Source: Pseudokineococcus lusitanus | Lineage (GTDB): Bacteria > Actinomycetota > Actinomycetes > Actinomycetales > Quadrisphaeraceae | Assembly (NCBI RefSeq): GCF_003751265.1 | Contig: NZ_RJKN01000001.1 | Coordinates: forward strand, 620,001 to 684,000 | Length of the DNA stretch: 64,000 bases | Direction: 5' to 3' | Shown: piece by piece, positions 11,711 through 20,666 of the stretch | How positions within the stretch are numbered: the stretch's first letter is position 1 | How the letters are laid out: each line of letters starts with the position of its first letter | Made by a program: the position numbers and the translations under genes | The notes under the pieces: model-generated | Database searches by the model: none | What the model was told of the DNA's origin: nothing | What the model saw: only the letters and a program-made list of their open reading frames with translations

Positions 11711-12889
11711 ATGGCCACCGCCTACCTGCGGCAGCACGAGCCACGCCGCCGCCAGTACCGCTCCCCGCGCCGCCTCGACCGGTCTCCGGTCCGCGGCAAG
11801 GTTGCTCCCGTCACGGTCGTGCACACCGCCGAGTCGGTCATGGACGCCGTCGGCGACGACACCGGCGCCGAGAACGTCGCCCGCTTCATGGTCGGCCGCA
11901 CCGACCCCGGCAGCTACCACGACCTGGTCGACAGCGACTCCCGCGTGCAGCTGGTCTACTACGGCGACGAGGCCTACCAGGACGGCACCGGCTCGAACCC
12001 GTGGTCGCTGTCCATCTCCTTCGCCTGCCGCACCACCGACTGGTCGAAGATGAGCCAGGGCCGCCGCCGCGCCTTCCTGCACCAGGGCGCGCTCGCCTTT
12101 AAGGCGCAGCAGGACTGGCGCCGGTCGAAGGGCTACCCCCTCGTCGCGCTGCGCCGCATCAGCAAGGCCGAGAGCGACCGCGGCGTCTCCGGCTTCGTCT
12201 ACCACGGCGACCGCGACCCCGGCCGCCGCACCGACCCGGGCACGAGCTCGCGGGCGGCCTTCCCGCTCGCCGAGTTCTTCGCCGAGATCGTCCGCGTCGA
12301 GGCCGGCCGCGCGCCGGCGCCCGAGATCACCCCGGTCAAGGTCGGCACCCGCGAGCTGCGGCAGACCTCGCCGACGATGAAGGGCACCGACGTCCTGGCC
12401 GTCCAGCGGTGGGCCGGCGTCGCCGAGGACGGCTCCTACGGGCCCGCGACCGTCGCCGGCGTGCGCCGGGTGCAGGAGACCGTCGGCGTGCCCGTCACGG
12501 GCGTCGTCGACGCCGTGACGTGGCAGCACTACGGCCGCTGGGTGAAGTGGCGCGCCGACAAGGCCGCTGCCGACTCCGCGCCGAAGCCGGCCCCCGCCCC
12601 GGCGCCGCGCCCGCCGGTCACCGCCAAGCCCGCTCTGCCGCGCCTGGGCGCCTTCACCGCCGACCGCGGCCTCAGCCGCGCCCGGAACTCCAGCACCTAC
12701 CACGCGGGCGTCGAGAAGTGGCAGCGCGCGCTCGCCGCGCAGGGCCTGTACCGCATCGGCTCGGACGAGCCGGGTCGCTTCGGCGACGACACCGAGGCCG
12801 CGACGAAGACGCTGCAGCGTCAGCGCGGCCTCGTCCCCGACGGGGTCGTCGGCCCCGCCACCTGGCCCCACGGAGAGAAGTGGTCATGA
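11711..12889 (+). CDS. Endolysin: N-acetylmuramoyl-L-alanine amidase with two peptidoglycan-binding domains
   Basis: A 392-residue protein; ATG start 6 nt after GAGGAGGG. Residues about 28-190 match a PGRP/amidase-2 domain that cuts between N-acetylmuramic acid and L-alanine: His38 in VVHTAES, His70 in SYHDLVD, and the His165...Asp pair in YHGDRDPGRRTDPG are the expected zinc ligands and active-site area. Two PG_binding_1-like domains follow (about 220-275 and 330-388; each ends in a VVDAVTW/VVGPATW-type motif), joined by an Ala/Pro linker. There is no signal peptide, so export depends on a holin. The stop overlaps the next gene as ATGA. Confidence 0.88.
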   Translation: MATAYLRQHEPRRRQYRSPRRLDRSPVRGKVAPVTVVHTAESVMDAVGDDTGAENVARFMVGRTDPGSYHDLVDSDSRVQLVYYGDEAYQDGTGSNPWSLSISFACRTTDWSKMSQGRRRAFLHQGALAFKAQQDWRRSKGYPLVALRRISKAESDRGVSGFVYHGDRDPGRRTDPGTSSRAAFPLAEFFAEIVRVEAGRAPAPEITPVKVGTRELRQTSPTMKGTDVLAVQRWAGVAEDGSYGPATVAGVRRVQETVGVPVTGVVDAVTWQHYGRWVKWRADKAAADSAPKPAPAPAPRPPVTAKPALPRLGAFTADRGLSRARNSSTYHAGVEKWQRALAAQGLYRIGSDEPGRFGDDTEAATKTLQRQRGLVPDGVVGPATWPHGEKWS

Positions 12890-13473
12890 CCCCTGCCCGT
12901 CACGCCGCACCCGGGGCCCGCGGCCCCGCCGTCCTGCAGCTCGAGGTCTACGCCAAGGCGGCGCTCTACATCGCCGCGGCCGCCATGGCGGCGATCGTCG
13001 CGGCGCTCACCGACGACGTCGTCACGCCCGCCGAGCTCGTGCTCGTCGGCCTGGCCGTCATCGGCGCCGCCGGCGTCTACCTCGTGCCGAACCTGCCCGA
13101 GGGCGCTCGCCGCTACGCCAAGGGCGGCGTGGCCGTCCTGGTGGCCGCCGGCGACGCGCTCGTCGTGCTCGTCTCCGACGGCGTGACGCTGTCGGAGTGG
13201 CTGCTCGTCGTGCTCGCCGGGCTCGCGGCCGTCGGCGTCGTCGTCGTGCCGAACGCCTCCCCGGCCGACCTCACGCTCGCGCAGCGCGCCGGGCCGATCA
13301 CCGTGCTGCCGGTCGTCACCACGACGACGGGCCTGAGCTCCGGCGACGTGCAGCAGCGCGTGACGGAGCGCTTCGACCCCGCGTCGCTGGGCTCGGTCAC
13401 CACGGCGGCGGCGGCCGACCTGCGCTTCGACGACGACGGCGTGCTGCAGAGCGTCGCCCCGCCCGGCGCCTGA
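12886..13473 (+). CDS. Holin-like membrane protein with an internal duplication
   Basis: A 195-residue protein whose ATG overlaps the endolysin stop. Two copies of one module are visible: about residues 36-70 (ALTDDVVTPAELVLVG ... GVYLVPN) and about 88-121 (LVSDGVTLSEWLLVVL ... VVVVPN), each with a membrane span pair. Single-module relatives with the VPN ending are common beside actinophage endolysins and are usually called holins. The last 70 residues are soluble and Asp/Ala-rich. Together with the endolysin it would complete the lysis cassette. Confidence 0.68.
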   Translation: MTPARHAAPGARGPAVLQLEVYAKAALYIAAAAMAAIVAALTDDVVTPAELVLVGLAVIGAAGVYLVPNLPEGARRYAKGGVAVLVAAGDALVVLVSDGVTLSEWLLVVLAGLAAVGVVVVPNASPADLTLAQRAGPITVLPVVTTTTGLSSGDVQQRVTERFDPASLGSVTTAAAADLRFDDDGVLQSVAPPGA

Positions 13474-13490
13474 CCAGCGCGCGCCCTCGC

Positions 13491-13520
13491 CCCCCGCCCC
13501 GGCTCACGCCGGGGCGGGGG
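13491..13520 (+). terminator. Terminator of the phage late operon
   Basis: A 13-bp perfect G+C stem with a TCAC loop follows the last lysis gene by about 18 nt and is followed by a short T-containing run (CTTCGTCG). It separates the late operon from the AAA+ ATPase gene. Confidence 0.75.
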
Positions 13521-13568
13521 CGCTTCGTCGCGTCCATGCTGACTGCGGTGCGACACCGCCATCGCCCG

Positions 13569-13588
13569 AACTTAGCGAGTGCTAGGTT
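13569..13588. promoter_or_regulatory. Imperfect palindrome, candidate operator/promoter of the ATPase gene
   Basis: AACTTAGC and GCTAGGTT form an inverted repeat (7 of 8 positions paired) around a GAGT spacer, 44 nt before the ATPase start codon. The stretch is AT-rich compared with the prophage and contains TAGGTT, a plausible -10 element. It could be the binding site of a small repressor; no binding protein is identified. Confidence 0.4.
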
Positions 13589-13631
13589 GTAGTGAGCAGG
13601 ATGACCAACTAGTGAACGAGGTGGCCGCGGC

Positions 13632-14861
13632 ATGGACAGCCAGTGGAATGAGATCCCGGCGGACGTGCGGGACATGCGACGGAGGACTCTCTTTTCCGTC
13701 TTCAGCCCCTCCGCACCGGTCGATCGGCGTGAGGTCTTCGCCGGACGCCTCGAGCAGCTGGCGACCTTGCGTGAGGTCGTCTTCCAGCGGGGTCAGCATG
13801 CGGTCATCTACGGGGAGCGAGGCGTAGGGAAGACGTCGCTTGCACGGGTGTCCCGAGACGTCGCCACGGCTGAGCAGATGTTCACGGCGCATGTGACCTG
13901 CGACGGCGGCGACAGCTACGCGAGCATGTGGACGAAGGTACTCTCGGAAATCCATTTCACCATCGAGGGCACCGAGGGAGGCGAGGAGGGCAGCTCGACC
14001 GCGCTGGCGTACGCATCGGAGATGAGCGGGGCCATCGACTCGAACACCCTCCGCATGGTCTTCACGGCGCTGGGACGCGTGGCGCCGACCGTCGTCTTCA
14101 TCGACGAGTTTGACGTAATCACTAGCGCAGAAGTGCGTCAGCGAACCGCCGAGACGATCAAGATGCTTTCCGATCAGGGCGTCAACGTTACCGTCGTGCT
14201 CGTCGGCGTTGCCGAGGACGTCACGGGTCTCATCTCCGCTCACGAGTCCATTAATCGGAACATTGTGCAAGTGCCGATGCCCCGCATGATCGTGTCCGAG
14301 CGCCTGGACATCATTCGTACTGGCCTCAGCACGGCTGAGATGTCGATCGACGACTCTGCCGCACAGCGCATCGCGCTCCTGTCCCAAGGGCTGCCGCACT
14401 TCGTGCACTCCCTAGCACAGAAGGCGGCGCTAGCTGCCTTGAACGCCGGGCGGGACCGCGTGGAGGACGGCGACGTGTCTGTCGCCATTTCGCAGGCGCT
14501 CGACGCCTCTCTCGTAACCGTGTCGTCCGCCTATTACCACGCGGTGACATCAAATCGTGAGACGACGTTGTACCCGTCGGTGCTACTGGCCTGTGCCTTG
14601 GCGACTCCAGATGACCGAGGCTTCTTCACGGCCAAGGCGCTGGTCGCTCCCCTCACAACGATTCTGGGGAGAGAGGTCGGCATCCCCGCCTTCGGGCCGC
14701 ACCTCAACAAGTTGGCCAACGAGAGAGGGCCGGTTCTCATCAAAGAAGGTGAGCCGCGCCGCTACCGATACCGCTTCCGCAACCCGCTGTTGCAGCCGTA
14801 CGTGCTCATGCGAGGCATCTCGGATGGGCTGATCAGCTTCTCTGCCATTGAAGGGCCTTAA
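13632..14861 (+). CDS. AAA+ / ORC-like P-loop ATPase, prophage accessory gene
   Basis: A 409-residue protein starting at an ATG. Walker A is GERGVGKTS (residues 61-69) and Walker B VVFIDEFD (154-161); GLPHFVHS (253-260) resembles the sensor-2/lid motif of ORC1/Cdc6- and TniB-like AAA+ proteins. Residues about 300-395 probably form a winged-helix domain. There is no nuclease, transposase or membrane domain in the protein itself. The gene's G+C content (about 55-63% in lines counted) is far below the flanking phage genes, and it has its own candidate operator and a strong terminator, so it looks like a later insertion (moron). A defence or exclusion role is possible but unproven. Confidence 0.75.
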   Translation: MDSQWNEIPADVRDMRRRTLFSVFSPSAPVDRREVFAGRLEQLATLREVVFQRGQHAVIYGERGVGKTSLARVSRDVATAEQMFTAHVTCDGGDSYASMWTKVLSEIHFTIEGTEGGEEGSSTALAYASEMSGAIDSNTLRMVFTALGRVAPTVVFIDEFDVITSAEVRQRTAETIKMLSDQGVNVTVVLVGVAEDVTGLISAHESINRNIVQVPMPRMIVSERLDIIRTGLSTAEMSIDDSAAQRIALLSQGLPHFVHSLAQKAALAALNAGRDRVEDGDVSVAISQALDASLVTVSSAYYHAVTSNRETTLYPSVLLACALATPDDRGFFTAKALVAPLTTILGREVGIPAFGPHLNKLANERGPVLIKEGEPRRYRYRFRNPLLQPYVLMRGISDGLISFSAIEGP

Positions 14862-14901
14862 GCAGAAGCGCCCCCGGCCACGGGCCCGGGGGCGCTTCTG
14901 C
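14862..14901. terminator. Strong bidirectional terminator
   Basis: A 16-bp perfect stem (GCAGAAGCGCCCCCGG and its complement) with an 8-nt loop starts one base after the ATPase stop codon and lies just before the end of the convergent HTH gene, so it can serve both. Confidence 0.9.
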
Positions 14902-14909
14902 GTGCTGGG

Positions 14910-15371
14910 TCAGCGGTCGGCGAGCTGGCGGCGCGGGGCGGTGGTCTCCACGGCGACGGCGCTGATGGCGTAGGTGCTGCCGACGCGGGTGGCGGCGAGG
15001 GTGCCGGCCTTGATGCGCTCGAGGACGGACTGGCGGGTCATACCGAGGCGCTCGGCGGCCTCGGTGACCGAGAGCAGCTCGGGCAGGAGCGGGAGGGCGA
15101 CGCGGCGGTCGAACTCCTTCGTCGTCATCGCCTCGACGGCCGCGACGTCGGGCCGCCCGAACTGCGTGAGCAGCGCGAGGGCGGTGGTGACGGCCTGGCC
15201 GACGCTGTCGGCGGGCAGGCTGACGATGACCTCGAGCCGGCCGACGTCGGTGACGCTGACGGCGGGCGAGTAGAGGGCGAGGAAGTCGAGCAGGCGCTCG
15301 TGGTCGTCGGGGACCTCGCGGTGGGCGCCGGCGGGCCCGAGCTCGAGCCGGATGGTGTGGGACGTGGCCAC
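14910..15371 (-). CDS. HTH DNA-binding protein (excisionase/MerR-like C-terminal domain)
   Basis: A 153-residue protein. The GTG at 15371 is chosen because CAGGAGG lies 6 nt upstream; the frame is open further but without a ribosome site. Residues about 100-150 (LLSVTEAAERLGMTRQSVLE, then RIKAGTLAATRVGSTYAISA) are a typical excisionase-type winged helix-turn-helix, as in small phage regulators. The N-terminal 90 residues form a domain common to actinobacterial proteins of this kind but of unknown function. It may repress or activate phage genes, or act in excision. Confidence 0.7.
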   Translation of the reverse strand: MATSHTIRLELGPAGAHREVPDDHERLLDFLALYSPAVSVTDVGRLEVIVSLPADSVGQAVTTALALLTQFGRPDVAAVEAMTTKEFDRRVALPLLPELLSVTEAAERLGMTRQSVLERIKAGTLAATRVGSTYAISAVAVETTAPRRQLADR

Positions 15372-15430
15372 GGTGTGCCTCCTGGGTGGTGGTGGGGCTG
15401 CCGGGGGTGGGGTGATGATGGCCGGACCTC

Positions 15431-15469
15431 CCAGGGACCGGAGGCACTTGCTCTGCCTCCGGCCCCTGG
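15431..15469 (-). terminator. Hairpin between the HicA-like and HTH genes
   Basis: A 9-bp core stem (CCGGAGGCA with a 7-nt loop) extended by a 6-bp outer stem after one mismatch lies 4 nt beyond the stop codon of the HicA-like gene. It would limit read-through into the HTH gene. Confidence 0.65.
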
Positions 15470-15472
15470 GGG

Positions 15473-15712
15473 CTACCGCTCGCCGTCGCGTCTCCGCTTC
15501 GGCGGCTTGGGCGGCCACTGGAACCCGCGGCGCTTGAGCGGCGCCAGCGCGTTCAGCGTCGACCGCCTGTCGCTCGCGGTCCCCGCGAAGGTCGTCACCT
15601 TGCGCCCGTCGGCGTCGCGCACCTCCACGTGCCCGCTCTTCAGCGTCTCCGTGGTGTAGCCCGCCGCCTCGATGGCCTCGACGATCTTCTTGAGGTCCTT
15701 GTCCATCATCAT
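15473..15712 (-). CDS. HicA-like small protein (dsRBD-type fold)
   Basis: About 79 residues. Three consecutive ATG codons (15712, 15709, 15706) are all possible starts behind GAGAGGGGG. The sequence (DLKKIVEAIEAAGYTTETLK, then a KSGHVEV motif, TFAGTASDRRSTLNAL and a basic end) follows the pattern of HicA-type mRNA interferases, in which a histidine after the Gly turn (here in SGHVEV) is catalytic. Many actinophages carry such a gene without a HicB partner, and no HicB-like gene lies beside it here. It may be an RNA-binding regulator rather than a toxin. Confidence 0.65.
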   Translation of the reverse strand: MMMDKDLKKIVEAIEAAGYTTETLKSGHVEVRDADGRKVTTFAGTASDRRSTLNALAPLKRRGFQWPPKPPKRRRDGER

Positions 15713-15730
15713 CACCCCCTCTCGCTTGCT

Positions 15731-15769
15731 GACAGGACGAGCATACCAGCCTTCCTGTCGTTTGACAGG
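15731..15769 (-). promoter_or_regulatory. Promoter with three GACAGG/CCTGTC half-sites, candidate repressor operator
   Basis: GACAGG occurs at 15731 and 15764 and its complement CCTGTC at 15754. The last two form a palindrome with a 4-nt centre. On the minus strand CTGTCA (15768-15763) and TATGCT (15745-15740) are spaced 17 nt, giving a fair -35/-10 pair for the HicA-like gene, so the palindrome covers the -35 element. This is the layout of an operator; the protein that binds is not known. Confidence 0.5.
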
Positions 15770-15838
15770 ACGACGGGCGGACGGGTGACGTGATGTCGAG
15801 CGCACCCGGGCGCGCTCGCGTGACGTGACGATGGCGCC

Positions 15839-16021
15839 ATGCCCCGCACGCGTGTCAGCGCCCGCCGCCGCACGGCGCAGCTCCTCGTCGGCTACGGCCT
15901 GCCGTTCGCGGGCGCTGGCGCCGCGTACCTCTTCGGCGTCCGGGACTGGCTCGGCGCCCGCACGGCGGCCGCCGAGTGGTGGGCCGGGCAGATCGCCGCG
16001 GCCGCCCCCGGCGTCGCCTGA
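15839..16021 (+). CDS. Small membrane protein (hypothetical)
   Basis: A 60-residue frame with an ATG start, a basic N-terminus (residues 1-12), one probable span (about 14-32, QLLVGYGLPFAGAGAAYLFG) and an amphipathic Ala/Trp-rich end. It lies 18 nt before the next HTH gene. The length and setting fit a small phage membrane protein, but only the open frame and composition support it. Confidence 0.4.
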   Translation: MPRTRVSARRRTAQLLVGYGLPFAGAGAAYLFGVRDWLGARTAAAEWWAGQIAAAAPGVA

Positions 16022-16038
16022 GAGTCGGCCCTCCGCTC

Positions 16039-16287
16039 GTGCCCTACCCCGGCCGGCCGGTTCTTCGGCCCCTCCCCCGCTTCGCCGGCACGGGCGGCGA
16101 CGGCGGCCGCCGCGCCGACCCGGACCTCGTCGAGTTCGTCCTCGCCGAGTACGCCGCCGGGCGCTCACTGCGCGAGATCGCCGAGCTGACCGACCGGTCC
16201 CACGGCGCCATCCGCTACCTGCTGCAGCGCCGCGGCGTCCTGCGCCGTGACCGCGGCGCGCCACCTGCTGCCGCGCCGCCGCCATAG
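16039..16287 (+). CDS. Small helix-turn-helix protein
   Basis: About 82 residues from a GTG at 16039; the frame is open from 15976, so the start is uncertain. The middle part (DLVEFVLAEYAAGRSLREIA and then ELTDRSHGAIRYLLQRRGV) is a clear Hin/sigma-4-like helix-turn-helix found in small actinobacterial and phage regulators. The end is Pro/Ala-rich. It may bind one of the candidate operators in this segment. Confidence 0.6.
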   Translation: MPYPGRPVLRPLPRFAGTGGDGGRRADPDLVEFVLAEYAAGRSLREIAELTDRSHGAIRYLLQRRGVLRRDRGAPPAAAPPP

Positions 16288-16328
16288 CTCGCCCGCACGA
16301 CGCTCGAGCACGGCATACGGTCACCGAC

Positions 16329-16997
16329 GTGACGGGGGACGCGCTCGAGAAGCAGCTGCAGGTGTGGTGCCCCACCTGCCAAGAGCTGAAGTTCTGGCAC
16401 GCGCACGTGCCTACGTGGTGCGCCAACTGCGAGCAGCTCTTCCCTACCCGCATCCTGCTGCGCCGCGGAGTCCGCGACATCAAGATCCACGACTCACAGG
16501 CGCAGTGCCCCGACTGCGACCTGTACTCGCCGATCATCGACGGCATCTACGAGTTCACCAGCACGGCCCTCAACCTGCTGTCGCGCCCCGAGTACGACCT
16601 CGAGCGGCTCGCAAACGTCGCGCTCGCCCTCAACGCCGCTCGTCAGCAGCGGTCCCCGCAGGCGGCCATCCGGACCGTGACGAAGACCGACGAAGAGCTG
16701 GGGCAGCACCTCAAGCGCTTCTTCGAGTGGAAGGGCGCCCCCGCTGTCATCGCGGCGCTGACGCTCCTTGTGAGCGTGGTCGTGCCCTTGGTCACCGCCT
16801 ACGTGGGCCGCACGGGGGTCGACGAAGATCGCGTGCACGAGATCGTCGAGGAGGCCGTCCAAGAGTCTCGGCGGCAGAGCAACGAGCCGGACGCCGTCAC
16901 CGAAGCGGTCGTCGAGGCTGTCCGTCAGGCCTTCGCAGAGGAGCGGGCGAGGTCACAGCCACCCCGACCAGACACACCACCGCCAGTAGCGCCATGA
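16329..16997 (+). CDS. Zinc-ribbon membrane protein of unknown function
   Basis: A 222-residue protein starting at a GTG. Three CxxC pairs (WCPTC near residue 14, WCANC near 31, QCPDC near 59) suggest one or two zinc ribbons in the first 65 residues. A helical segment (about 75-135) leads to a single membrane span (about 138-160, VIAALTLLVSVVVPLVTAYV), followed by a charged, acidic helix and a Pro-rich end. No known family is recognised. It lies in the accessory part of the prophage between regulators and the integrase, where lysogenic conversion or exclusion genes are often found. Confidence 0.6.
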   Translation: MTGDALEKQLQVWCPTCQELKFWHAHVPTWCANCEQLFPTRILLRRGVRDIKIHDSQAQCPDCDLYSPIIDGIYEFTSTALNLLSRPEYDLERLANVALALNAARQQRSPQAAIRTVTKTDEELGQHLKRFFEWKGAPAVIAALTLLVSVVVPLVTAYVGRTGVDEDRVHEIVEEAVQESRRQSNEPDAVTEAVVEAVRQAFAEERARSQPPRPDTPPPVAP

Positions 16998-17148
16998 GGG
17001 CGTAGCCGACCGGGGTGCCGGCTTCGACGGCCAGCAGTGCCGTGACGACGGCTGCCACCACCCACTAGCGGTGCACAGCACCAGTGTCCTCTTAGCCCGA
17101 CCGATCTTCGGGACCTGCTGACAGAGGTCGCCTCTACCTTCCCAGCGC

Positions 17149-17487
17149 ATGGCGGGCGGGATGCATCCGAAGCGCGGCCGCGGCGTACCGCTCGGCGAGC
17201 GACCCGTCGCCGGCCGCGACGAGCCTCCGGCGCCCGTGGCGACGAGCCCGGCCTACCGTCGGCTCATGGGACTGCCGGAGCCGCCGCGGCCGCCGCTGTC
17301 GCTGGACCGCCAGCACGTGCTCGTCGAGACGGACGAGGGCCCGGCCGCCGGCCTGCTCGTCGAGCTGGCCGGGGACCGGGCCCGGGTCATGTACGCGTGC
17401 GACGAGGAGGATGCCTCGCAGAGCCTCCTCGAGACGTGGGTGCACGTCGACGACGTCGTCGAGGTGGACGCGCCCCCACCCGTCTGA
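17149..17487 (+). CDS. Small hypothetical protein
   Basis: A 112-residue frame from the ATG at 17149. An alternative ATG at 17266 would give 73 residues, and both are preceded by a TANNNT hexamer (TACCTT and TACCGT) 6-8 nt upstream, so either could be leaderless. The residues shared by both (LDRQHVLVETDEGPAAGLLV and onward) are regular and acidic, ending VHVDDVVEVD, like a small beta-barrel. No family recognised. Confidence 0.45.
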   Translation: MAGGMHPKRGRGVPLGERPVAGRDEPPAPVATSPAYRRLMGLPEPPRPPLSLDRQHVLVETDEGPAAGLLVELAGDRARVMYACDEEDASQSLLETWVHVDDVVEVDAPPPV

Positions 17488-17505
17488 GCAGCTGTCAGGG
17501 CGTGG

Positions 17506-18264
17506 CTACGCGGGGGTCCAGTCGTTGCAGCCGCGGCTCTGCCAGATGTCCCCGTCCTCGAGCTCGACACGCAGCGGACCGTCGGACAGCTCGTTGCTGA
17601 TGATGTCGGCGTCCGCCCCGAGTCCGTCGAGGAAGGCGTAGTAGCAGCCGAAGGCTCCGCCGTCCGTCCGGTAGGAGCCGGCAGCGACGTCCTCGCCCAC
17701 GACGAAGACGCCGTCTCCCGGGATGGTCGACGCTTCGACGGCCTCCTCCGTCGCGGTGACGGCCGCCTCGCGCTCGGCGACGGCCGTCTCCCTGTCGGTC
17801 AGCTGCTGCTCGGCCTCATCGAGCAGCGTCTGCGCCTCGGCAAGACCTGCCTCGACCTCGGTGACCCGATCCTCGGCCGCGTCGCGGGCGGTGTTGGCGC
17901 CCTCGAGGTTGCGCTGCAGCTGCTCCACCGACGACTGCAGCTCGTCGCGGTCGGCGGTCATGGCGGCCATCTGGTCGTCGTCTCCCCCGGCGGCGCTGCA
18001 GCCGATGAGGAGCCCGAGGAGCCCGGCGCCGACGGCTGCGGCGATGAGGCCGCGGCGGCCGCCCGGGCGCGCCAGTCGCTCGGCCTTCGCCTGCTGCTCT
18101 TCCACGACCGGGCCCTCGTCGGCTGCTGCACGGTCGTCGTCGACGTAGAGCTGCCAGCCCTCGGGCGCCGGCCCCCATGCCGGGTCGGGCTGCCAGTCCG
18201 CCGGCGGCTGCCACCCCTCGGGAGGCGCGGGCCAGTTCGGCGGTGGGTTGAAGCGTCGTGCCAT
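17506..18264 (-). CDS. Membrane-anchored coiled-coil protein with exported C-terminal domain
   Basis: A 252-residue protein. The N-terminal 40 residues are Pro/Trp-rich repeats (NWPAPPEGW, DWQPDP, APEGWQ). A single span (about 69-90, RRGLIAAAVGAGLLGLLIGC) ends in a lipobox-like Cys. Residues about 95-180 form a long coiled coil, and about 185-252 (GVFVVGEDVAAGSYRTDG, GCYYAFL) match a domain seen at the end of many actinobacterial exported proteins. In a prophage this build suggests a surface protein made by the lysogen, perhaps for superinfection exclusion. That role is inference from position only. Confidence 0.65.
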   Translation of the reverse strand: MARRFNPPPNWPAPPEGWQPPADWQPDPAWGPAPEGWQLYVDDDRAAADEGPVVEEQQAKAERLARPGGRRGLIAAAVGAGLLGLLIGCSAAGGDDDQMAAMTADRDELQSSVEQLQRNLEGANTARDAAEDRVTEVEAGLAEAQTLLDEAEQQLTDRETAVAEREAAVTATEEAVEASTIPGDGVFVVGEDVAAGSYRTDGGAFGCYYAFLDGLGADADIISNELSDGPLRVELEDGDIWQSRGCNDWTPA

Positions 18265-18373
18265 GTCGGTGGGTCCTCCCCGTATCGATCCTCGCGGCGT
18301 GCATGCACGCGCCCGCCAGCCTGCGCCAGGAGGCGCCGAGCCCGCGGCGATGTGTCCGTCCTGTGACCTGCGG

Positions 18374-19240
18374 TCAGGCGGCTGGCCGGAGCCCGCCGCG
18401 TCGACGGTCCGCCTCGAGCAGCGCGCCCGCCGCGGCGCGACGGCGGGCGTCGTCCGGGACCAGCGTGTAGATCTGCGTCGTCGTCACCTGGGAGTGACCG
18501 AGCAGTTCCTGGACGGCGCGCAGGTCCCGCTCGACGGAGTAGGCGAGCGTGGCGTAGCGGTGCCGCAGCGTGTGGGCGGTCCAGCCGGGCCCGAGCGCCG
18601 CGGACATCAGCTTGGAGACCGTGTGCGCGGTCAGCGGCTGCCCCGGCCTGGTGCCGGAGGGGAAGATCCAGCCGGGCGGGAGCCGGCGCAGGATGCGCGC
18701 GAGCTCGTCGTCGAGGGGGACCAGGCGCTCGCGGGCGCCCTTCCCCCGCACGTGCAGCGACGACCCGACGACGTCGCGCACGAGGTCTTCGCGGCGGACC
18801 CGGGCGACCTCGCCGGCGCGCAGGCCGGTGCGCTGGGCGATCACGAGCATGAGCCGCTCGCGCAGCGGCGCCCGCTCGAGCGCCTCGAGCAGCACCTCGT
18901 CGGGCGTGGGCCGCGGCGTCCGCCGCGGCGCGCGGATCAACGGCAGCGCCAGCGTCGGGTCACGCAGCAGCCGCCCAGCGGCAACGGCCCACCCGTAGAA
19001 GCCCCGCAGCGACGCCCGCACCGACCGGCGCGTGTCCGCGCCCCACTCCATCCCCGCCGTCCACGAGACCAGGTCGTCGGTCGTCAGGTCGTAGGGCCCG
19101 CGCTCGCGGTGGGCGGTGGCCAGCCGGCGCAGGTGGTACCGGCGCAGCTCCCTCGTCGTGCTCGGGCGCCCGGCCGCGGTCAGCCACCGGTCCCACCCGT
19201 CGATCTCCGTCTGCCACGTCGTCGTGACGATCAGCCCCAT
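18374..19240 (-). CDS. Tyrosine-type site-specific integrase
   Basis: A 288-residue protein from the ATG at 19240; the longer upstream open frame is low-complexity. An N-terminal SAM-like core-binding domain (about 1-95) precedes the catalytic domain. The catalytic set is visible: Arg141 in TGLRAGE, Lys167 in RGKGARE, His223 and Arg226 in HTLRHR, His249 in LGHS and Tyr258 in QIYT. It would recombine attP with the tRNA attB. It reads into the prophage, about 520 bp from the tRNA 3' fragment, which fits integration into that tRNA. Confidence 0.92.
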   Translation of the reverse strand: MGLIVTTTWQTEIDGWDRWLTAAGRPSTTRELRRYHLRRLATAHRERGPYDLTTDDLVSWTAGMEWGADTRRSVRASLRGFYGWAVAAGRLLRDPTLALPLIRAPRRTPRPTPDEVLLEALERAPLRERLMLVIAQRTGLRAGEVARVRREDLVRDVVGSSLHVRGKGARERLVPLDDELARILRRLPPGWIFPSGTRPGQPLTAHTVSKLMSAALGPGWTAHTLRHRYATLAYSVERDLRAVQELLGHSQVTTTQIYTLVPDDARRRAAAGALLEADRRRGGLRPAA

Positions 19241-19428
19241 GCCTCGCACTCGAACACCCGTGCGATACACACCGCCAGCGGCTTCGGCGGCATTCACCCG
19301 ATCCGGGCGTGTCGCCTTCACTCGTGCGGGTGGCGTCGTGCCGCCGGGTGAACGCTCGGCCGCCGACGGACGTACTCCCCCAGACGTCTCGACGGGGAGG
19401 TGGTCGACGAGGACCAGCGGAGGGCGGC

Positions 19429-19653
19429 TCACGGCCGGTACGCCCGTAGCTCGCGCTCGAGCACGCGCAACGGGCGCCCGGCGCCGCGGTCGAGGCGCAC
19501 GAGCACGTCGCCGTCGGCCAGGTCGCCCAGCGTCGAGACGCGGGCGACCTCGTGGAAGTCGAAGCCCAGGTCGACGAGCTGCTCGGCGCGGGCGTCGCTC
19601 ATGCCGTCGCCGTCCAGCGTGGCCATGTCACCGACGCGCAGCGGCGCGCTCAC
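19429..19653 (-). CDS. Small hypothetical protein between integrase and attachment site
   Basis: A 74-residue protein from a GTG at 19653. The sequence is charged and regular (LDGDGMSDARAEQLVDLGFD) without a membrane segment. It lies upstream of the integrase in the same direction and inside the prophage boundary, where recombination directionality factors are sometimes encoded. It has no recognisable HTH, so no function is claimed. Confidence 0.45.
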   Translation of the reverse strand: MSAPLRVGDMATLDGDGMSDARAEQLVDLGFDFHEVARVSTLGDLADGDVLVRLDRGAGRPLRVLERELRAYRP

Positions 19654-19759
19654 GCCGCCACCGCCGCCGGCGCGAGCTCGCGGCGGCCGGGCGCACGCCG
19701 CTCGCTGCCGCGACGCAGCGGAGCCAGCGGCACGACGACATCCGCGCGGCCCCACCCAG

Positions 19760-19799
19760 AATCAGTGGGTTCCCGGTTCGAGTCCGGGGCGGCGCACCA
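19760..19799 (+). other. Prophage attachment site: displaced 3' part of a tRNA gene (probably tRNA-Lys)
   Basis: The sequence from 19760 reads as the end of an anticodon loop and stem (AATCAGT), a variable region, a T arm (CCCGG, TTCGAGT, CCGGG at 19772-19788), an acceptor strand GCGGCGC and an encoded CCA ending at 19799. No matching 5' half (GCGCCGC and D arm) lies upstream, so this is not a working tRNA. AATCAGTGGGTT after the anticodon is the usual tRNA-Lys pattern. In phage integration into a tRNA the host 3' end is displaced in just this way, and the tRNA is restored at the other prophage end, outside the window. Confidence 0.8.
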
Positions 19800-19804
19800 G
19801 CACG

Positions 19805-19838
19805 AGGCCCTCGTCCGACACCGTCGGGCGGGGGCCTT
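19805..19838 (+). terminator. Likely original terminator of the tRNA gene
   Basis: A 15-16 bp stem with several G-U pairs and a 3-nt loop, followed by TTCGTCGTCC, lies 5 nt after the tRNA fragment. It is probably the host tRNA terminator left behind next to the displaced 3' end. Confidence 0.6.
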
Positions 19839-20003
19839 CGTCGTCCTCCCTCGCGGGAGCGGCTGCGCCGCAGCGCCGGCCGACGCCACGACGGCGGTCC
19901 CCGAGGAGCCCCGCGCCGCCGGGCGGGGCGCACGTTTACGCCGTAGCGTCGCGCGCACCCGCCGCCGCCCCGGTGCGCGGGTCCCCGCCCCCGAGGAGCC
20001 CCT

Positions 20004-20666
20004 GTGACCCCCCGCAGCCGCGCCGCCGCCGTCTCCCTCGCCGTCGTCCTCGCGGGCGGCCTGCTCGCCGGGTGCGGCGCCGGCCGGGACCTGTCCGACC
20101 GCAGCGGCGGCGGCCTGTCGATGGAGCCGTGGCGCGACCGCGTCGACGCGCGGGACCGCGGGGACGACCGCGCCGGGGCCGCCGAGGACGCCGCGCGCTC
20201 GCTCGAGGACTGCGCCGACCCGGACGACGCCGCGGAGCTCGAGGGCGACCAGGGCGACGTCTCCGTCACCGTCCACGTCCCGGCGGACTCCTCCGACGAC
20301 CACGTCGAGGACCTCGAGGACTTCCGCGAGGACACGGACGCCGGCCCGGTCTGCTGGGTCGTCGTCGAGGTGGACAACCGGGACGGCACCGAGGTCGTCG
20401 ACCTGCCCGAGGTCGACGTCGTGGCTGCCGACGGCAGCCGCGTGACCCTGCAGCGTGCCTCGGACGTGCTGAGCACGTGGGCCGAGCGGTCGGACGACGA
20501 CGACGCCGTGGCCCGCGCCGTCGAGCTCATCACGCAGACCGGCGGCACGGTCTCCCCCGGCCAGGAGGGCTACCTCGTGCTGCTGGCCGCCGAGGACCTC
20601 GACGACCCGCGGGCCGCGCACGTCCGGCTCACCGACGGCGGGGACGTCCTCACGCTGGAGCGCTGA
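20004..20666 (+). CDS. Lipoprotein of unknown function
   Basis: A 220-residue protein; GTG start behind GAGGAG. Residues 1-23 are a lipoprotein signal ending in LLAGC, so Cys24 would be lipid-modified and the protein held on the outer face of the membrane. The following 60 residues are very acidic and disordered. The folded part (about 85-220, WVVVEVDNRDGTEVVDLPEV) resembles DUF4352-like immunoglobulin folds of actinobacterial lipoproteins. The last 17 bp overlap the end of the convergent P450 gene. It is the first chromosomal gene after the prophage. Confidence 0.7.
   Translation: MTPRSRAAAVSLAVVLAGGLLAGCGAGRDLSDRSGGGLSMEPWRDRVDARDRGDDRAGAAEDAARSLEDCADPDDAAELEGDQGDVSVTVHVPADSSDDHVEDLEDFREDTDAGPVCWVVVEVDNRDGTEVVDLPEVDVVAADGSRVTLQRASDVLSTWAERSDDDDAVARAVELITQTGGTVSPGQEGYLVLLAAEDLDDPRAAHVRLTDGGDVLTLER

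What the first reader, a model, noticed from the sequence alone, without database searches (positions are those of the whole stretch)
13560..14901. Low-GC AAA+ ATPase island in the prophage with its own regulation
A single ORC/TniB-like ATPase gene with far lower G+C than the phage genes on either side sits between the lysis cassette and the regulators, framed by a candidate operator and a strong terminator. This is the classic moron pattern. It has no nuclease or transposase partner in the same protein and belongs to no phage module I know. A role in host defence, superinfection control or replication interference is plausible, and this is my best candidate for an undescribed system here.
Basis: partly seen in the sequence, partly recalled or inferred. 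Interest (0 to 1): 0.62.

Follow-up and report, generated by a model that had tools for sequence, protein, structure and literature searches.

The report
Lone mobile ATPase carried by prophage
A dormant virus in this actinobacterial genome carries a foreign single-gene ATP-driven switch protein of a scattered, never-tested family that phages, plasmids and small transposons pass around; in several relatives it sits in phage genome slots that hold proven anti-virus genes, so it is a good candidate for a one-protein defence against rival phages.

Summary
Window 13632-14861(+) encodes a 409-aa AAA+ ATPase. Its 62.9% G+C is the lowest of any 1,230-bp stretch in the 64 kb (mean 76.2, sd 3.1; lowest elsewhere 69.9). 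It is a separate transcription unit between two strong hairpins, inside a prophage of about 48.7 kb bounded by a 38-bp tRNA-Lys att core. The 'operator' is not proven.

It belongs to phrog_6841 (E=1e-42, function unknown). I found over 100 full-length relatives across many phyla, rare within any group (2/297 genomes of its order). It is nearly always solitary: no conserved partner, and neighbours differ at every locus. In phages it fills exchangeable slots. Mycobacteriophage Kevin1 gp30 sits where Butters carries its tested gp30/gp31 defence; E. coli and Salmonella P2-like prophages carry it in the gpA-gpQ defence hotspot. In at least five loci an IS1-like transposon with 8-bp target duplications carries it.

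The confident model (pLDDT 94) shows an active ORC/Cdc6-STAND ATPase, lid and winged helix, without an effector domain.

Best reading: a phage-borne accessory gene, probably single-protein anti-phage defence (0.55). Defence is inferred from position and mobility; nothing tested it.

The parts
13632..14861 (+). Solitary ORC/Cdc6-STAND-type AAA+ ATPase, 409 aa (Walker A 61-69, Walker B 154-159, Arg-finger candidate R209, GxP 253-255, C-terminal winged helix)
13489..13523 (+). GC-rich hairpin ending the lysis operon, upstream edge of the island
   Evidence: -38.1 kcal/mol, z=-3.67; GGGGGCGCTTC at its 3' side
13580..13588 (+). Extended -10-like motif TGCTAGGTT, possible own promoter (read by eye, unproven)
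   Evidence: sequence; consensus scan found no sigma-70 site
13569..13588 (.).
   Evidence: z=-2.61, 1 of 200 shuffles as good
13616..13621 (+). Likely ribosome binding site ACGAGG, 10 nt before the ATG
   Evidence: sequence
14862..14901 (.). Near-perfect hairpin between convergent genes, downstream edge of the island (terminator-like)
   Evidence: -40 kcal/mol, z=-6.7; holds GGGGGCGCTTC in both orientations
11711..12889 (+). Endolysin (amidase plus peptidoglycan-binding), lysis cassette
14910..15371 (-). HTH_17 regulator/excisionase-like gene, convergent with the ATPase
18374..19348 (-). Tyrosine integrase
19760..19797 (+). attR: 38-bp core identical to the 3' part of tRNA-Lys(CTT) at C1:591071-591108 (attL)

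Best explanation
The gene is a moron: a foreign, self-contained accessory gene inserted between the lysis operon and the regulatory/integration genes of a tRNA-Lys-integrated prophage. It encodes an active AAA+ ATPase of the ORC/Cdc6-STAND clade (ATPase, lid, winged helix) with no effector domain and no partner gene. Shown: gene, composition, boundaries, family, architecture, solitary state, mobility and slot-sharing with proven defence genes in other phages. Inferred: it is expressed from the prophage and protects the lysogen from other phages, acting alone as an ATP-driven switch. The monomer would hold ATP between the Walker motifs and the lid's GxP motif. Contact of the winged-helix/lid face with a phage protein or with replicating phage DNA would open it and let protomers stack through R209 onto each other's ATP site. 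The assembly itself would then block the invader, for example by occupying replication DNA or a helicase loader, or would stall the cell. The choice between blocking and abortive infection is open.
For: Same slot as a tested defence: Kevin1 gp30 (38% identical) directly follows gp29 after the lysis genes; in Butters that position holds gp30/gp31, shown to inhibit PurpleHaze and Alma (PMC7542560); in Xeno it is empty. Distant relatives in E. coli and Salmonella P2-like prophages lie between gpA and gpQ, where old/tin and many validated systems sit (PMC9519451; PMC9122126). Others lie between Q antiterminator and holin of lambdoid prophages. Cashline has it where Angelique lacks it. Solitary: no conserved neighbour in 114 loci; same-strand neighbour within 60 bp at only 3 upstream and 8 downstream of 114 loci; among 116 flanking proteins no Pfam family recurs more than twice. 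Sparse but wide: 2/297 genomes in its order, relatives in Pseudomonadota, Actinomycetota, Acidobacteriota, Chloroflexota, Planctomycetota, Cyanobacteriota and others. The minimum number of phage/non-phage changes on the tree is 13. Active ATPase: GxRGxGKxS, DE, K177, G192, H204, S206, R209 invariant in 64/64; G253 and P255 in 63/64. Model pLDDT 94, pTM 0.90; best fold matches are Cdc6/Orc1 (1fnn, E=2e-11) and archaeal ATPase 2qen.
Against: No member has been assayed as far as I could find. Immediate neighbours are not known defence genes; PADLOC hits among 116 neighbours are mainly generic kinases at two loci. The P2 hotspot also holds non-defence genes such as partition systems (PMC9122126). 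The window copy points with the late genes rather than with integrase/regulators, so lysogenic expression is not given. No effector domain is present, so how it would stop a phage is conjecture. The window copy does not group with the Kevin1 or Cashline copies, so the slot argument is by analogy.
Confidence: 0.55

Rival explanations
1. It is a TniB/TnsC-like transposition ATPase: a target-choosing AAA+ regulator that travels with, or acts in trans on, transposases.
For: TniB model PF05621 passes its cut-off (25.0 vs 22.4). At least five relatives lie inside IS1-like transposons with 8-bp target duplications, and one lies alone between 133-bp inverted repeats.
Against: Most loci have no transposase nearby (an adjacent transposase of this type in 7 loci). 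The window copy has no transposase and no terminal repeats (its best inverted repeat equals the shuffled maximum). IS1-type elements are not known to need an AAA+ partner (own knowledge). It has a C-terminal winged helix and sits in non-transposon slots in phages.
Confidence: 0.12
2. It is a phage replication-type ATPase (ORC/Cdc6- or DnaC-like initiator or loader) that helps this phage or replaces a host function.
For: Closest folds are Cdc6/Orc1, RuvB and RFC; 57 of 64 members match the orc1/cdc6 model TIGR02928 at E<=1e-3.
Against: TIGR02928 scores 19.4 bits against a cut-off of 181. It does not lie in replication modules; related phages do without it; relatives also occur as single genes in chromosomes and plasmids.
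Confidence: 0.1
3. It is a counter-defence or replication-interference gene used by the infecting phage against host systems or competitors, expressed late with the lysis operon.
For: Same orientation as late genes; members sit just after the Q antiterminator or among tail genes in some phages.
Against: A strong hairpin separates it from the lysis operon; many copies are outside phages, where counter-defence has little use.
Confidence: 0.1
4. It is a neutral or decaying passenger without a benefit to phage or host.
For: Rare and scattered; foreign composition retained, so recently acquired.
Against: The open frame is intact and all catalytic motifs are invariant across very distant members, which needs selection.
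Confidence: 0.06

Closest known systems
Mycobacterium phage Kevin1 gp30 (cluster N), AAA-ATPase orpham (PMC6544188)
   Same: Full-length homologue (38% over 96%), solitary, in the accessory slot between lysis genes and integrase/immunity; authors suggested relevance to cluster N immunity
   Different: Opposite orientation to lysis genes, next to a HicB-like gene; in the tree it falls in another clade; function untested
Gordonia phage Cashline gp34 (hypothetical protein)
   Same: Full-length homologue (39.6%), solitary, between tail genes and integrase; missing in relative Angelique
   Different: Further from the lysis genes; neighbours a Ro-like RNA-binding protein; untested
Butters gp30/gp31 prophage-mediated defence (PMC7542560)
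   Same: Same genome slot as Kevin1 gp30; accessory gene of a temperate actinophage
   Different: Unrelated proteins (DUF4747-like cytoplasmic protein and a 4-TM protein); experimentally shown to inhibit phages
P2-like gpA-gpQ hotspot systems (old, tin, PD systems; PMC9122126, PMC9519451)
   Same: Distant members (about 25% identical) occupy this slot in E. coli and Salmonella P2-like prophages
   Different: Validated systems there are other proteins; this ATPase is not reported among them in the texts read
ORC/Cdc6-STAND AAA+ ATPases of defence systems: BrxC, BrxD, DUF499 (PMC12839542)
   Same: ORC/Cdc6-type AAA+ core with an arginine at the base of strand 5 and C-terminal helical part; BrxD is also a small ATPase without extra domains
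   Different: They work in multi-gene systems with fixed partners; here there is none
Mad8 (MADS) and IetA (IetAS)
   Same: Weak AAA-core similarity (mad8 E=4.6e-8, IetA E=1e-4)
   Different: Only a short stretch matches; system partners absent
TniB/TnsC transposition ATPases
   Same: Core pattern around Walker B to Arg finger; TniB model above cut-off
   Different: No cognate transposase at most loci; added winged helix

Membership tests
phrog_6841 | Profile match over most of the protein | tested here: met
   E=1.1e-42, 147.5 bits, two stretches, best 153-400 of 409; function unknown
ORC/Cdc6-STAND AAA+ clade | Walker A and B intact, Arg at base of strand 5, GxP or sensor-2 lid, winged helix after the lid | tested here: met
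   R209 just before strand 211-216; G253/P255 in 63 of 64; WH at about 314-397; nSTAND1 34.1 vs cut-off 27.1
Classic STAND defence (Avs/NLR-like) | N-terminal effector and C-terminal sensor repeats | tested here: not met
   409 aa; only about 35 residues before the ATPase and one WH after the lid
TniB/TnsC transposition regulator | Encoded beside a cognate DDE transposase | tested here: not met
   window: none; family: IS1-like transposase next to 7 of about 114 loci, an IS type not known to use an AAA+ partner
IetAS | IetA above cut-off plus subtilisin-like IetS | tested here: not met
   19.4 vs 510 bits; no protease neighbour found at the window locus
MADS (Mad8) | Full-length Mad8 with the mad operon | tested here: not met
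   best stretch positions 186-235 of 314 only; no operon
BREX BrxD/BrxC | Part of a brx/pgl gene cluster | tested here: not met
   no such neighbours
Phage replication ATPase or clamp loader | Confident family match and replication-module location | tested here: not met
   phrog_168 clamp loader E=0.0014 only; location between lysis and regulators
Prophage-mediated defence (moron type) | Accessory gene in an exchangeable slot of a temperate phage | tested here: met
   for this prophage (foreign, self-contained unit); exchangeability shown in relatives' phages only
Prophage-mediated defence (moron type) | Expressed in the lysogen and lowers plating of other phages | not testable with these tools
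   needs RNA-seq and plating assays

The most novel reading that the evidence does not exclude
A single, effector-less ORC/STAND ATPase is a complete anti-phage system on its own: the ATP-driven assembly is both sensor and effector. It has spread over many bacterial phyla by jumping between prophage defence slots, plasmids and dedicated small IS1-like transposons.
Probability: 0.33. Interest if true: 0.75.

Novelty: new variant of a known kind. Interest (0 to 1): 0.52.

Why it matters
Most ATPases in bacterial immunity need a nuclease, protease or membrane partner. A family that is nearly always alone, catalytically intact, and carried by phages at known defence slots as well as by transposons would be a minimal immune switch, close in fold to the replication initiator Cdc6. 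It is easy to test: Kevin1 is a cultured mycobacteriophage of a laboratory host with the family member already mapped as gp30.

Tried and rejected
Single-sequence scans of genome contigs and viral contigs found nothing; an alignment of six members was needed. Close relatives of this prophage, to test the exact slot here, were not found: the endolysin has only partial matches and the integrase resembles small Gordonia phages, so slot evidence comes from Kevin1, Cashline and P2-like phages. Rfam found no RNA in 13400-20500. A sigma-70 and terminator consensus scan gave nothing. A conserved operon partner was looked for by all-against-all comparison of neighbours and not found. A HicB-like gene beside Kevin1 gp30 looked like a partner, but Xeno has it without the ATPase. 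Membership in IetAS, MADS, BREX and TniB was considered and rejected (see membership test). Terminal repeats around the window copy were sought and not found. DefensePredictor systems DS-8 and DS-41 appeared as weak NCBIfam hits, but DS-8 is a metallophosphatase-NACHT protein (PMC13092281), so that hit is only to the shared NTPase part. The paper on E. coli prophage defences (doi 10.1016/j.chom.2025.04.021) is not held, so I cannot exclude that a homologue was tested there.

Full report
What is there. The ORF at window 13632-14861 (+) encodes 409 aa. Pfam places it among AAA ATPases, with AAA_22, AAA_16, nSTAND1 and TniB all above their curated cut-offs. PHROGs puts it in phrog_6841, function unknown, E=1.1e-42. 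Its G+C of 62.9% is below that of every other 1,230-bp stretch of the 64 kb (mean 76.2, sd 3.1; lowest elsewhere 69.9), and the step in composition coincides with two hairpins. The hairpin at 14862-14901 folds at -40 kcal/mol (z -6.7) and the one at 13489-13523 at -38 (z -3.7). The two hairpins share GGGGGCGCTTC, which occurs three times in the window, all at these edges (0.15 expected). The gene is therefore a unit of its own between the lysis operon and a convergent HTH gene.

The carrier. Portal, tape measure, endolysin and integrase genes surround it. A 38-bp core from the 3' part of tRNA-Lys(CTT) occurs exactly twice in the genome, at C1:591071-591108 and at window 19760-19797, giving a prophage of about 48.7 kb with the ATPase in its right part.

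The family. A single-sequence scan found nothing. The named phages Cashline and Kevin1 and plasmids of Clavibacter and Salinibacter gave full-length relatives at 38-44%. An alignment of six then brought 80 genome loci (of 363 found) and 36 viral contigs. Members are spread over many phyla but rare: 2 of 297 genomes of the same order, 1 of 395 of the class at a stringent cut-off, none in the three same-genus genomes searched. In a tree of 69 members the window copy is not inside the clades that hold Cashline or Kevin1; its place is unresolved, and at least 13 phage/non-phage changes are needed. Caution: genome loci may include unlabelled prophages, and viral contigs were selected for being viral.

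Solitude and mobility. All-against-all comparison of neighbours found no conserved partner. In 114 loci a same-strand neighbour within 60 bp is rare (3 upstream, 8 downstream; median gaps 326 and 186 bp; gene calls are my own heuristic). Flanking proteins are diverse, including housekeeping genes, and no Pfam family recurs more than twice in 116. PADLOC finds mainly generic kinases at two loci, so there is no defence-island signal. Five loci (L041, L057, L067, L090, L106) lie between matching terminal repeats (four of type GGTAGTGTCTCAGTTTGAA, L090 a divergent GGTACTGGTAAAGTTTGAA) and perfect 8-bp target duplications; L016 and L024 have the repeats without a perfect duplication. In L090 the adjacent gene matches the IS1 transposase model weakly (E=0.0056). 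L076 has the ATPase alone between 133-bp inverted repeats. No such ends were found around the window copy.

Slots in phages. Kevin1 gp30 follows gp29 just after the lysis genes. In Butters that place holds gp30/gp31, shown to inhibit other phages, and the Butters paper states that all characterised cluster N prophage defences map to the central variable region (PMC7542560). In Xeno the place is empty. Cashline carries the ATPase where Angelique does not. Distant members lie between gpA and gpQ of E. coli and Salmonella P2-like prophages, the hotspot with old, tin and many validated systems (PMC9519451; PMC9122126), although that hotspot also holds non-defence genes. Others lie between Q and holin in lambdoid prophages.

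Architecture. The model is confident (pLDDT 94, pTM 0.90). Best fold matches are Cdc6/Orc1 (1fnn) by E-value and, with one of the higher whole-chain TM-scores shown, the archaeal ATPase 2qen (0.52/0.60); whole-chain TM-scores near 0.5 mean the fold class is sure but domain angles differ. GxRGxGKxS, DE, K177, G192, H204, S206 and R209 are invariant in 64 of 64; G253 and P255 in 63. R209 sits directly before strand 211-216, the arginine-finger position described for ORC/Cdc6-type ATPases (PMC12839542). The lid carries GxP, as in STAND and archaeal ATPases, rather than the sensor-2 arginine of Cdc6 (own knowledge). There is no effector domain.

Reading. The evidence shows a mobile, solitary, active-looking ATPase that phages exchange in accessory slots. 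That it defends the lysogen is inferred from the slots and the mobility; that it works by ATP-controlled self-assembly is inferred from the clade and the conserved arginine. A transposition regulator, a replication factor and a counter-defence role remain possible and are less well supported. Kevin1 gp30 had already been published as an AAA-ATPase orpham of possible relevance to immunity (PMC6544188), so the family is not wholly undescribed; what is added here is its breadth, its solitary state, its slots and its transposon vehicles.

Noticed in passing
L041:2016-4583; L057:4284-7349; L067:8148-11674; L090:8479-11380; L106:4614-8053: Compact IS1-like transposons (2.6-3.5 kb, terminal repeats GGTAGTGTCTCAGTTTGAA, divergent in L090, perfect 8-bp target duplications) carry this ATPase as passenger; L067 and L106 also carry a NYN-domain gene, and L016, L024 and others a small 'GGKAR' ORF convergent with the ATPase.
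   Followed up: partly
L076:3654-5365: The ATPase is the only gene between 133-bp imperfect inverted repeats, without an 8-bp target duplication: possibly a non-autonomous unit.
   Followed up: no
window 16329-16994 (+): Second-lowest G+C stretch of the window (about 69.9% near 16381): a 222-aa protein with CxxC pairs and a likely membrane segment, no family match; possible second accessory gene of the same prophage.
   Followed up: no
window 15476-15712 (-): 79-aa protein that resembles HicA-type RNA-binding toxins by eye; phrog_2089 of unknown function (E=5e-15), no Pfam match.
   Followed up: partly
window 17509-18264 (-): 252-aa protein: proline/tryptophan-rich N-terminus, membrane segment, coiled coil and small C-terminal domain, next to the integrase; possible surface or exclusion protein.
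   Followed up: no
window 18377-19348 (-): Integrase closest to those of very small (16-17 kb) Gordonia phages although this prophage spans about 48.7 kb.
   Followed up: no
L103:10001-11152 and L038:10001-11152: In Dyella prophages a relative sits between tail genes resembling lambda K and J, another late-operon accessory slot.
   Followed up: partly
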